Assembly (NCBI GenBank): GCA_903858815.1
Contig: CAIOKE010000218.1
Coordinates: forward strand, 1 to 64,000
From: an uncultured Planctomycetaceae bacterium
GTDB taxonomy: Bacteria; Planctomycetota; Planctomycetia; Planctomycetales; Planctomycetaceae
Reading direction: 5' to 3'
DNA length: 64,000 nucleotides
Below, piece by piece: positions 43,224 through 45,903 of the stretch (position 1 is its first letter; the number at the start of each line of letters is the position of its first letter). A model generated the notes under the pieces. That model did no database searches, had not been told where the DNA came from, and was given only the letters and a program-made list of their open reading frames with translations. Made by a program: the position numbers and the translations under genes.

Positions 43224-43853
43224 ATGATGTCTGAACGAGATGAACTGCTGATTCAGCGATGTATCGACGATGAGTTGTCATCTGAGCAGACTCGAGCACT
43301 GACAGGCCGTCTTGACACACTGACGGGTGGCTGGAAGGCGCTGGCCTGTGGTTTTCTGGAAGATCGTTGTCTCCGGAAATCCATCGAGACTGGACGTAGT
43401 GCTGCGGGGCTTTCTGAAGCCCAGCCGGCGATTGTGGCGACTGTGGTGACAGATCCGGTGATGATGACGCCACTTGTGCGTGGAATCAGGAAGCCTCTGG
43501 AGCGAGTCTGGCGACATCCGGCGACATCGCTGGCGTTATGTGCGGCGATTGCGTTTCTGGGCGGGCTGCTGGTACCGAATGGAAAGCCTTTCGACGACAG
43601 CGGATCTGTGACGAGGGGCGAGTTTGCAGCTGCGGGGACCAGTCGTCGCGGCGGGGGGCAGATGGAGGTCCAGATGCCCGGGCAGCGTCCGGTGAGTGTA
43701 CCGATTTTTGACAGTCGTGAAGAGTGGGTGCGGCAGAGTAATCCGCAGGTGCTGGCGCCGAATGCCGGTACTCAGTACATCATTGTTCCGACAGAGGATG
43801 GACGGGTTGTCGTGGTGCCTGTTTCGCGGGTCGCTTCGGACGGGCTGCAGTAG
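43224..43853 (+). CDS. Anti-sigma-like single-pass membrane protein
   Basis: This 209-residue protein has a cytoplasmic N-terminal region of about 90 residues (LLIQRCIDDELSSEQTRALTGRLDTL, which resembles planctomycete anti-sigma N termini), one membrane helix near 100-118 (SLALCAAIAFLGGLLV) and a periplasmic tail of about 90 residues. It starts 5 bases after the sigma gene, which favours an anti-sigma role. No HxxxCxxC zinc motif is seen, so the mechanism would be non-zinc. Its periplasmic tail may sense stress through the next gene product. Confidence 0.72.
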   Translation: MMSERDELLIQRCIDDELSSEQTRALTGRLDTLTGGWKALACGFLEDRCLRKSIETGRSAAGLSEAQPAIVATVVTDPVMMTPLVRGIRKPLERVWRHPATSLALCAAIAFLGGLLVPNGKPFDDSGSVTRGEFAAAGTSRRGGGQMEVQMPGQRPVSVPIFDSREEWVRQSNPQVLAPNAGTQYIIVPTEDGRVVVVPVSRVASDGLQ

Positions 43854-43902
43854 AGTGACAGGACATTTTTTCAGTGCTGGATTTCAGCGGAGGGGGCGAC
43901 AG

Positions 43903-44964
43903 ATGAACACAGGATTTGTGGTTATGCAGCGGGCGACGGCGGTATTACTTTCGGCTGTTGTGGTCACCGGCTCTGTCGCAGCAGACGAGCCGGCAGGTAA
44001 GGCCACAGCTGGGGCTCAGGCGCAGGCTTCCGGCGAATTTCAGGTGGAGGTCGAGGTGCAGTCCGGCGATGAGTCCCGGGAAGGCAGAAAGATTGAGTAT
44101 CGGGTGCAGCGTTCGCGCAGCGAAGGTTCCGAGGATGACAGGAAAACAGCTCCGAAGGTCACTCGGCGTTCGCGGATCGTCATCATCGGTCCGGACGGAG
44201 TTCGTCGTGAATTTGACGGCGAGGACAAGGATGGGCGTTCGATGATACTGCAGATACCCGACGGCGAGGCGTTGCTGAAAAAGCTGGAGTCGGAGGGTGG
44301 CACCGAAGGGTCAGAGCCGGAGTCGGAACGACTGATGATCGGCGTGCGGTGTGAGGCTGCCGATGTGCGACTGAGGAAACATCTGAAGCTGGCCGATGCG
44401 GGGCTGGTGGTGCTGCGAGTTGAGGAGGGTACCCCGGCAGCGCGTGCTGGCATCGAAATCGACGACATTATAATCAGTGTGGACAGCGCAGCGGTCAAAA
44501 CGCCACTTGAGCTGGTCGAAAGAATCGGCCAGTCTGCAGGTCGAGCGGTTGAGATTGTGATGTTGCACAATGGGGAACAGAAGACAGTGTCTGTGACTCC
44601 TGAAAAGCTGCAGCCCGGTTCATTTCCTGCGTGGGAGGAGACTGCGGCCAGGCAGGATGGACTGCTGCAGATGCTGCAGGGAAATCGCATGCTGAAGATG
44701 CATCCGGGGATCATGCTGGATCTGCAGTCTGATATGACTCCGGAAGAGATTCAGAAGCAGATCGAGCAGATGATGAACGGCGAGAGCATCGAAGGGATGG
44801 CAGAGGCACTGAAGGGGCTGGCCGAGAATGGCGTAGCGAAAAAATCTGAGACGAAAGAGCCTGCCGAGCCCGCGTCCGGGACGGAGGTTGAATTACAGCA
44901 GTTGAAAGCGGAGTTGCGTGAGCTGAAGGCGATCGTGGAGCAACTGAAGCAGCCCAAACTGTAG
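43903..44964 (+). CDS. Exported PDZ-domain protein in the sigma cluster
   Basis: This 353-residue protein has a signal peptide (cut near SVAADE, residue 28), an acidic charged region to about 120, and a PDZ domain at roughly 140-245 (LMIGVRCEAADVRLRKHL; GLVVLRVEEGTPAARAGIEI; DDIIISVDSAAVKTPLELVERI). No trypsin-like catalytic triad is present, so it is not a DegS/DegP protease. The C-terminal 60 residues form a coiled coil (ELQQLKAELRELKAIVEQL). It may relay misfolded envelope protein signals to the neighbouring anti-sigma. GGAGGGGG lies nine bases before ATG 43903. Confidence 0.88.
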   Translation: MNTGFVVMQRATAVLLSAVVVTGSVAADEPAGKATAGAQAQASGEFQVEVEVQSGDESREGRKIEYRVQRSRSEGSEDDRKTAPKVTRRSRIVIIGPDGVRREFDGEDKDGRSMILQIPDGEALLKKLESEGGTEGSEPESERLMIGVRCEAADVRLRKHLKLADAGLVVLRVEEGTPAARAGIEIDDIIISVDSAAVKTPLELVERIGQSAGRAVEIVMLHNGEQKTVSVTPEKLQPGSFPAWEETAARQDGLLQMLQGNRMLKMHPGIMLDLQSDMTPEEIQKQIEQMMNGESIEGMAEALKGLAENGVAKKSETKEPAEPASGTEVELQQLKAELRELKAIVEQLKQPKL

Positions 44965-45318
44965 TCCGGGCATTCCTGACGCCGAGGACAAAAGTCGGCT
45001 GGGGCCGTCAAACCGACTTCAGCTCATTGAAAAACATCGTGTTTTTGCGGTATGGGGCCGAGCAGGAATGCTCGAGCTGCGTTTTTGTCCTCGGCGTCAT
45101 TCCTGCCCGGCCATCGTTTACCGAAACAAAACCGTATAGAGACATTCGGTTTCCCTGACGTGGCCTTGTTCTGTACTGGTACCCACGGGGCAAAGGGGGG
45201 GGGCATCGGAAACGTCCCTGGGCCGGTGCTCCGTGGTGCCAGGGGGCGAGCCGTCGGGTGCGATCCTGCGATGGCGTCACAGCACACTTCATTCAGCGAA
45301 GCGCCGTGACTGCTGTTT
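44965..45318. repeat. Branched inverted-repeat element and palindromic repeat in intergenic region
   Basis: No credible gene. Right after the PDZ stop, GACGCCGAGGACAAAA (44978-44993) pairs with TTTTGTCCTCGGCGTC (45083-45098), with an outer CCGGG/CCCGG pair (44966-44970, 45106-45110). Inside are three hairpins: AAGTCGG/CCGACTT (44992-45019), AAAAACA/TGTTTTT (45030-45046), CGAGC/GCTCG (45059-45074). CATTCCTG or its inverse occurs three times. A second palindrome of GGTACC/GGTGCC type covers 45176-45242. Confidence 0.75.
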
Positions 45319-45903
45319 TCAGGGTGTATCGGGGGCCGGGGGCTCAGCAGAGGCCTGTGGGCTGGTCGTTTCCGGTTCAGTCGTGGATGCGGGAGTGTGC
45401 AGTAGCATGCCAGTATCTGGCGGTGCTACTGCGGCATAGGCTTCGATACGGTCAACGGTAAAAGCCAGCAGGGACAGCAACTGAGGGACATCACGTTCGA
45501 CAAGCTGGGTCAGCTGACCGATGCGACTGCGAAACTCATTGGACTCCTGCCCTGCTTCGATGGTCCAGCGACGGACGTTAGGCACCTGCTTCTGAGCCAG
45601 TTCCAGATTACGTGTGGCCTGTTCAAAATCCTTCTGCTCCTCGATGCAGGAGGGCCGGAAGTCACCAATGCGGCGCATCTGGCACTGATGCAGACGGATA
45701 CGAGCGGAGTTGAGTTCCTGCAGGCAGCGTTCGGCTTCCCGCTTCCAGAAACCCGGCCGATCCTGTTCCAGCCACATGAGAATCTGTCGCACCTGTCCAT
45801 CGAGTGCTGCGATGCAGGTGCGGGCTTCTTCCTGGAACGCGACGACAGCCGAAGCGAATTTACGAAGAGAGTCGGTTGATGAGACGCCGGCTGAGTTCGC
45901 CAT
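45319..45903 (-). CDS. Coiled-coil partner of the WXG100-like protein, unknown function
   Basis: This 194-residue protein is almost entirely helical from residue 8 to 155 (FWKREAERCLQELNSARIRL; TRNLELAQKQVPNVRRW) and ends with a Pro/Thr/Glu-rich tail of about 35 residues. No signal peptide or membrane segment is present. The gene follows the WXG100-like gene by 34 bases, so the two are very likely one operon. The pair resembles the WXG100-plus-coiled-coil genes seen in planctomycetes; I do not know its function. ATG 45903 is used. Confidence 0.78.
   Translation of the reverse strand: MANSAGVSSTDSLRKFASAVVAFQEEARTCIAALDGQVRQILMWLEQDRPGFWKREAERCLQELNSARIRLHQCQMRRIGDFRPSCIEEQKDFEQATRNLELAQKQVPNVRRWTIEAGQESNEFRSRIGQLTQLVERDVPQLLSLLAFTVDRIEAYAAVAPPDTGMLLHTPASTTEPETTSPQASAEPPAPDTP

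What the first reader, a model, noticed from the sequence alone, without database searches (positions are those of the whole stretch)
44966..45110. Cloverleaf-like folded element directly after the PDZ gene
A 16-base-pair perfect stem (44978-44993 with 45083-45098), continued by an outer CCGGG/CCCGG pair across a symmetric CATTCCT/ATTCCTG internal loop, encloses three separate hairpins (7, 7 and 5 base pairs). CATTCCTG occurs twice directly and once inverted (45063-45070), so an alternative fold exists. It begins two bases after a stop codon. It could be a non-coding RNA, a mobile palindromic element, or a 3'UTR regulator. Antisense reading gives a small open frame that looks like an annotation artefact of the repeat.
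Basis: seen in the sequence. Interest (0 to 1): 0.6.

Follow-up and report, generated by a model that had tools for sequence, protein, structure and literature searches.

The report
Mini-transposon inserted inside a palindromic repeat
The cloverleaf is a 121-base defective transposon sitting in the loop of a second, smaller repeated palindrome just behind a gene; many copies and a likely helper transposase gene lie elsewhere in the same genome, and the mini-transposon carries a copy of the kind of target it jumps into.

Summary
The fold is real, but it is best read as DNA anatomy, not an RNA gene. Positions 44978-45098 are a MITE (121 bp, 16-bp terminal inverted repeats). It is flanked by a 6-bp direct duplication, ATTCCT, and sits in the loop of a GTAG-tagged REP palindrome (44961-44977 plus 45105-45112). 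The repeated CATTCCTG is the duplicated REP loop plus the loop of a second REP carried inside the MITE. The genome holds at least 152 matches to a MITE model and 283 REP matches. It also holds one insertion sequence (1849 bp) with the same ends, duplication and REP target, whose open 549-aa DDE transposase is closest to, but below the curated cut-off of, the IS1182 family. Of 57 collected copies, 27 have exact 6-bp direct repeats, 2 have 7-bp ones, and none has lengths 3-5 or 8-10. Stem changes show no covariation above shuffles. The syntenic gene pair of a congener lacks both REP and MITE. Fourteen nested arrangements show MITEs inserted into REPs of other MITEs. REP-targeting insertion sequences and IS1182-family use of hairpins are known. 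A MITE carrying its own transposase's preferred target looks like a new variant, as far as my searches show.

The parts
43894..44964 (+). PDZ-domain gene (start codon uncertain; the longest frame opens at 43696) whose TAG stop is part of the REP's GTAG tag
   Evidence: ORF list; Pfam PDZ_2 46.7 bits; sequence
44961..44977 (+). Left half of the outer REP: GTAG tag 44961-44964, arm CCGGGC 44966-44971, loop and first copy of the duplication ATTCCT 44972-44977
   Evidence: Sequence; the uninterrupted palindrome occurs 283 times in the genome at up to 1 mismatch, reversed control 0
44978..45098 (+). MITE, 121 bp, subfamily A
   Evidence: Copies in the own genome
44978..44993 (+). Left terminal inverted repeat GACGCCGAGGACAAAA; with the next 4 bases identical over 20 bases to one end of the insertion sequence L100:162-2010
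45054..45080 (-). REP carried inside the MITE (minus strand GCAG tag, arms GAGC/GCTC, loop ATTCCT); most copies have GTAG
   Evidence: Sequence; alignment A1; 39 of 46 listed GAGC/GCTC REPs lie in MITE-model matches
45083..45098 (-). Right terminal inverted repeat
45099..45112 (+). Second copy of the duplication ATTCCT (45099-45104) and right half of the outer REP, GCCCGGCC (45105-45112)
   Evidence: Sequence; duplication statistics
45319..45903 (-). Convergent neighbour gene (no Pfam match), conserved next to the PDZ gene in the congener G010

Best explanation
A non-autonomous transposon (MITE) inserted into the loop of a GTAG-type REP palindrome at the 3' end of the PDZ gene. Shown: terminal inverted repeats; a 6-bp target-site duplication equal to the REP loop; dispersed copies in this and one related genome; and, in the same genome, an insertion sequence with matching ends, the same duplication and the same REP target, encoding an open 549-aa IS1182-like DDE transposase. 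Inferred: that this or a related transposase acts in trans on the MITE ends and joins them 6 bp apart at the edges of the REP loop, so that repair duplicates the loop (possibly on a REP extruded as a hairpin or cruciform). The MITE carries a REP of its own, so each insertion adds a potential target; nested MITE-in-MITE arrays show that such targets have been used. The cloverleaf results from palindromes within palindromes: split REP, inverted repeats, inner hairpins and internal REP.
For: Own-genome copies: 61 matches to 44950-45130, 196 inverted-repeat hits against 20 for the reversed control, 152 sequence-model matches (150 candidates scored, a lower bound and many partial). Exact direct repeats flanking 57 pairs: 6 bp in 27, 7 bp in 2, none at 3, 4, 5, 8, 9, 10. 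Outside REPs, 9 of 27 have a perfect 6-bp repeat; 12 of 27 have at least 5 of 6 against a shuffled mean of 2.2, maximum 9 in 2000. 30 of 57 rejoin to a REP, with both orientations equal, 15:15. Insertion sequence L100:162-2010, 1849 bp, AGGAAT on both sides, halves of a REP outside, ORF 549 aa, DDE and DUF772 domains, IS1182 model E 5.4e-53. Its end is identical to the window MITE end for 20 bases. Related insertion sequences in G021 have GACG ends and 6- or 7-bp duplications. Congener G010 MITEs: 4 of 6 fetched have a perfect 6-bp duplication, one of them ATTCTT on both sides. G010 lacks REP and MITE at the syntenic locus: genes 71 bp apart against 354 bp here. Nested arrangements: 14 in the own-genome loci (10 with a stricter pattern), reversed and shuffled controls 0.
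Against: Only 27 of 57 copies have a perfect 6-bp duplication; several have mismatched or inverted flanks (L033, L092), which I ascribe to decay, nesting or recombination without proof. In G010 contigs chosen for CATTCCTG at one end, only 4 of 13 with a detected partner repeat had a perfect duplication. The REP share is biased by the first query, which contained REP flanks: among 27 copies found without it, 11 rejoin to a REP and 9 have a perfect duplication. Half-REPs at one flank let 215 of 2000 mismatched flank pairs rejoin to a REP. The transposase scores below the NCBIfam IS1182 cut-off (180.6 against 270 bits). It is a single copy, its own two ends differ at 4 of 16 bases, and MITE and insertion sequence share only the ends. 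Trans-mobilisation was not tested. G010 has MITEs but no match to the transposase.
Confidence: 0.87

Rival explanations
1. A structured non-coding RNA or 3'UTR regulator of the PDZ gene, kept by selection for its fold.
For: Very stable fold, z -6.9 and -8.0; position right behind a stop codon; one pair of the internal REP stem changes on both sides, A-U to G-C, in 4 of 41 distinct copies, all from the congener.
Against: RNAalifold covariation term only -0.2 kcal/mol. For the window's fold, cells paired 88.5% against 88.5% in shuffles and covariation score 0.074 against 0.077. Two pairs of the long stem are unpaired in 30 of 41 and 24 of 40 copies. Absent at the syntenic locus of G010. No Rfam family, no promoter-like site, and no terminator-like site at the element.
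Confidence: 0.04
2. A REP/BIME composite spread by a RAYT (Y1 tyrosine transposase), the 6-bp repeats being merely parts of neighbouring REPs.
For: The REPs have the GTAG tag and a hairpin; Y1_Tnp genes are common in relatives, 43 of 59 genomes. A RAYT that was lost or fell in an assembly gap could have spread the free REPs.
Against: No Y1_Tnp match in the own genome or in G010. Nine copies outside REPs have nine different perfect 6-bp duplications, which the REP loop cannot explain. The same ends bound a DDE insertion sequence.
Confidence: 0.05
3. A variant of the best explanation: the transposase recognises only a short sequence (C-ANNNNT-G), and the REP hairpin plays no part; REPs are hit because they offer that sequence in hundreds of copies.
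For: 23 of 27 perfect duplications are flanked by C and G. The nine non-REP targets have only 2-3 of 6 arm matches. The G021 relatives use AGCTTT, ATAAATT and AAATCTA sites whose flanks are not this REP.
Against: 18 of 27 perfect duplications are exactly ATTCCT or AGGAAT, a large share for one 6-mer. I did not count all C-ANNNNT-G sites of the genome. CATTCCTG is itself enriched, 722 against 56 for the reversed control, and how much of this lies in REPs was not counted, so sequence and structure are not separated.
Confidence: 0.4

Closest known systems
ISRm22 of Sinorhizobium meliloti (IS4 family in PMC1525189, subgroup IS4Sa in PMC2266710; passages read)
   Same: DDE insertion sequence that inserts at the symmetry axis of REPs and makes 6-bp direct repeats; 6 of 9 chromosomal copies perfect, the rest ascribed by the authors to recombination
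   Different: An autonomous element; no MITE derivative and no REP cargo are mentioned in the passages I read; a different transposase family
IS1272 and the IS1182 family (PMC5678879; passages and part 1 of the Discussion read)
   Same: IS1182-related transposase; stem-loops as targets; 16-bp inverted repeats; the authors' model includes a route (pathway c) in which only the loop is duplicated, the pattern seen here
   Different: IS1272 itself replaces the stem-loop and leaves no duplication; here arms are kept and the 6-bp loop is duplicated
GTAG-tagged REPs (PMC3733652; abstract, passages, sections 5 and 7 read)
   Same: GTAG tag, short GC-rich stem, hundreds of copies; the paper lists REPs in Rhodopirellula baltica and some REPs embedded in other palindromes
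   Different: Here the REP is split by a DDE-type MITE and a second REP is cargo; no RAYT detected in the genome
Bacterial MITEs such as RUP, NEMIS, ERIC, Nezha (described in PMC3733652, background passage)
   Same: 70-300 bp, inverted repeats, no coding capacity, mobilised in trans, fold strongly
   Different: REP-loop target and a copy of the target on board; I did not compare sequences with those families

Membership tests
MITE | Short, non-coding, with 15-30 bp terminal inverted repeats | tested here: met
   121 bp, 16-bp inverted repeats; subfamilies of about 121 and 131 bp
MITE | Target-site duplication | tested here: met
   27 of 57 exact 6-bp, 2 exact 7-bp, none at other lengths from 3 to 10
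MITE | Multiple dispersed copies | tested here: met
   also in G010
MITE | Full-length element with the same ends | tested here: met
   L100:162-2010
MITE | Mobilised by that transposase | not testable with these tools
   Needs a transposition assay
IS1182 family (transposase of the partner element) | NCBIfam NF033551 curated cut-off, 270 bits | tested here: not met
   180.6 bits, E 5.4e-53, nearly full-length; next family ISNCY 87.4 bits. Four relatives score 156-209.9, also below
IS1182 family (transposase of the partner element) | DDE domain with N-terminal DUF772 (feature recalled) | tested here: met
   PF01609, PF13751, PF05598 all above gathering scores
GTAG REP | GTAG tag next to a short GC-rich stem, high copy number | tested here: met
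   283 matches at up to 1 mismatch, reversed control 0
GTAG REP | Association with a RAYT (Y1_Tnp) gene | tested here: not met
   No PF01797 match in the own genome or in G010; both are draft assemblies
Structured non-coding RNA | Compensatory changes above background | tested here: not met
Structured non-coding RNA | Transcript | not testable with these tools
   No expression data

The most novel reading that the evidence does not exclude
A self-supplying target system: a MITE that carries the preferred target (a REP) of its own transposase, so that each jump brings a new landing site and nested arrays build up. The GAGC/GCTC REP subtype would then be spread aboard the MITE by a DDE transposase, without a RAYT. 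It would also be a natural case of the loop-duplication route that the IS1272 authors drew as pathway c for IS1182-family transposition.
Probability: 0.4. Interest if true: 0.6.

Novelty: new variant of a known kind. Interest (0 to 1): 0.42.

Why it matters
It removes a candidate RNA and puts a testable transposition system in its place. It gives many natural insertions that show where an IS1182-like element joins a palindrome (loop duplicated, arms kept), in contrast to IS1272, which deletes the palindrome. It suggests one way in which REPs can multiply without a RAYT: as cargo and target of a DDE-mobilised MITE. For annotation, it shows that a MITE nested in a REP looks like a first-rate structured RNA in one sequence and should be checked by copy number, duplication and covariation.

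Tried and rejected
Non-coding RNA: rejected on covariation, absence at the syntenic locus and lack of an Rfam match. tRNA-like: ARAGORN found none. A recombinase or inversion site suggested by the repeated CATTCCTG: rejected because the two outer copies are direct and other insertions have other duplicated 6-mers. A BIME spread by a RAYT: no Y1_Tnp in the genome. Promoter or terminator at the element: none found (one weak terminator-like site lies inside the PDZ gene).

Named relatives: the genome-contig scan with the transposase found 21 pattern matches, none encoding a relative. A DNA pattern scan then gave 22 stretches: 21 from one MAG, uncultured Planctomycetaceae LaPlata-b_bin-0686, whose contig lengths 5607 and 4606 equal those of G010 contigs 570 and 443, and one from Henriciella without a partner repeat (L154), taken as chance. 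The window's own genome has no name in these tools.

Rows dropped and caps: one duplicate pairing (L015 593-733) was removed before the counts (58 pairs to 57). One search listed 100 of 196 hits and one search listed 150 of 152 or more. One search used the first 100 of 283 REP matches and 72 typed intervals. Alignment A1 held 37 of the 57 own copies (subfamily A near 121 bp) and 5 of 6 fetched G010 copies. The nested pattern was sought only in the fetched own-genome loci L001-L100.

Literature: searches (50 papers, 20 listed; 14; 5; 15; 6; 5; 0). Apart from the four papers named under Closest known systems I saw listings only. The statement that no MITE with its own REP target is in print rests on these searches of open-licence PMC papers and no more.

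Full report
Observation. The stem 44978-44993 / 45083-45098, the outer arms, the three inner hairpins and the three CATTCCTG motifs are there, and the fold is far from chance on either strand (z -6.9 and -8.0). The window has no Rfam hit at gathering threshold and no tRNA.

Copies. A search of the window's own genome (6.39 Mb, 373 contigs) with 44950-45130 gave 61 matches; 285 first-look candidates, 40 scored. The inverted-repeat pattern GACGCNNNGGACAAAA gave 196 hits at up to 1 mismatch against 20 for the reversed control. A sequence-only model of 42 copies gave 152 matches with 150 candidates scored, so a lower bound; many are partial. There are two size classes, about 121 and about 131 bp.

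What the copies show. Lined up, the copies agree from GACGC to GCGTC and differ outside. The bases next to the ends are direct repeats of each other. Over 57 own-genome pairs, exact repeats occur at length 6 in 27 and at length 7 in 2, and at 3, 4, 5, 8, 9 and 10 in none. Eighteen of the 27 are ATTCCT or AGGAAT; the nine others are nine different 6-mers. Thirty of 57 rejoin, once one duplicate is taken out, to the palindrome GTAGCCCGRGCATTCCTGCYCGG, which occurs uninterrupted 283 times in the genome and 0 times reversed. This share is raised by the first query, which contained REP flanks; of 27 copies found without it, 11 rejoin to a REP. The MITE lies in either orientation in the REP (15:15).

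The window copy in these terms. REP left half 44961-44977, its GTAG tag providing the TAG stop of the PDZ gene; MITE 44978-45098; duplication and REP right half 45099-45112; internal REP of the MITE on the minus strand at 45054-45080. The inverted CATTCCTG at 45063-45070 is that internal REP's loop.

Helper. One single inverted repeat opens an 1849-bp element (L100:162-2010) with inverted repeats at both ends (12 of 16 bases alike), AGGAAT on both sides, and the two halves of a REP outside. One end is identical to the window MITE's for 20 bases. It encodes a 549-aa protein with DDE_Tnp_1, DDE_Tnp_1_6 and DUF772 domains. Its best NCBIfam model is IS1182 at E 5.4e-53, but below the curated cut-off (180.6 against 270 bits). 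It is the only copy in the genome. Of 99 genomes searched (own included), 18 have some match to the transposase, the long ones outside the own genome at 32-39% identity. In G021 three copies of a relative have GACG ends and duplications of 6 or 7 bp (AGCTTT, ATAAATT, AAATCTA) at sites that are not this REP. So the form of the ends and the duplication length extend to that relative, while REP targeting was seen only in the window genome and G010.

RNA test. On 42 aligned copies the consensus fold gains only -0.2 kcal/mol from covariation. For the window's own fold no measure exceeds shuffles: paired cells 88.5% against 88.5%, covariation score 0.074 against 0.077. The perfect 16-bp stem of the window copy is not typical: columns 6/121 and 7/120 are unpaired in 30 of 41 and 24 of 40 copies. 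One pair of the internal REP stem changes on both sides in 4 copies, all from the congener, which fits upkeep of the REP palindrome as DNA or RNA.

Relatives. MITE DNA is found in the own genome and in the congener G010 only (2 of 99). The REP is found 283 times in the own genome, 40 times in G010 and at most once in the other 57 searched. Neither of the two has a Y1_Tnp match, while 43 of 59 have; 14 others of the 59 lack it too, so the lack alone is not telling. In G010 the PDZ gene (66% identical) and its convergent neighbour are 71 bp apart with neither REP nor MITE, against 354 bp in the window. Of 6 fetched G010 MITEs, 4 have a perfect 6-bp duplication; one is ATTCTT on both sides.

Own target on board. 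Of the first 100 listed REPs, 39 of 46 with GAGC/GCTC arms lie in MITE-model matches, against 2 of 54 with GGGC/GCCC arms. The former subtype is thus mostly MITE cargo, the latter mostly a free repeat. Fourteen places in the fetched own-genome loci have an inverted repeat, half a REP, then a second inverted repeat, 10 with a stricter pattern, and 0 in reversed and shuffled controls. This is what insertion of a MITE into another MITE's REP gives.

Known background. Insertion sequences that target REPs are known; ISRm22 inserts at the REP axis with 6-bp repeats (PMC1525189, passages read). IS1272 of the IS1182 family targets stem-loops and replaces them, and the authors' model includes a route in which only the loop is duplicated (PMC5678879, passages and part 1 of the Discussion read). 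GTAG REPs are known in several phyla (PMC3733652). I did not find, in the searches made, a MITE that carries its own transposase's REP target.

Verdict. As a class this is known (a MITE in a REP), with an instructive twist: own target on board, loop-exact duplication by an IS1182-like element, no RAYT detected. Shown: anatomy, copies, duplication, partner element, lack of covariation, absence at the syntenic locus, nesting. Inferred: trans-mobilisation, any role of the hairpin, amplification through self-supplied targets.

Noticed in passing
G000 contigs C108:5971/6167, C109:3567/3763, C121:72/268: Pairs of REPs exactly 196 bp apart on three contigs, which suggests another repeated unit that contains REPs.
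   Followed up: no
G000 contig C146:4620, 4700, 4781: Three REPs in one orientation at 80-81 bp spacing, a small tandem array.
   Followed up: no
L008 near 144 and L087 near 133: A MITE end runs straight into one shared stretch (GATAGGGGTAGGGAGGACC...) in both loci; it reminds me, from recall only, of the end of a group II intron.
   Followed up: no
L032, L035, L046, L080, L086, L089: Subfamily B MITEs carry, behind the inverted repeat, a second palindrome like GTAGTCTGGGCTTTAGCCCGGGC, perhaps a second REP family.
   Followed up: partly
L033, L092 (own genome), L138, L139 (LaPlata-b_bin-0686): MITEs with an inverted instead of direct flanking pair (AGGAAT...ATTCCT or the reverse), as if copies in opposite orientation had recombined.
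   Followed up: no
window 44961-44964: The GTAG tag of the REP supplies the stop codon of the PDZ gene; the G010 orthologue ends with other codons, so the REP's arrival may have reset the C-terminus.
   Followed up: partly
G000 and G010: Both REP-rich genomes lack a Y1_Tnp (RAYT) match although 43 of 59 searched genomes have one; how the free GGGC/GCCC REPs spread is open.
   Followed up: partly
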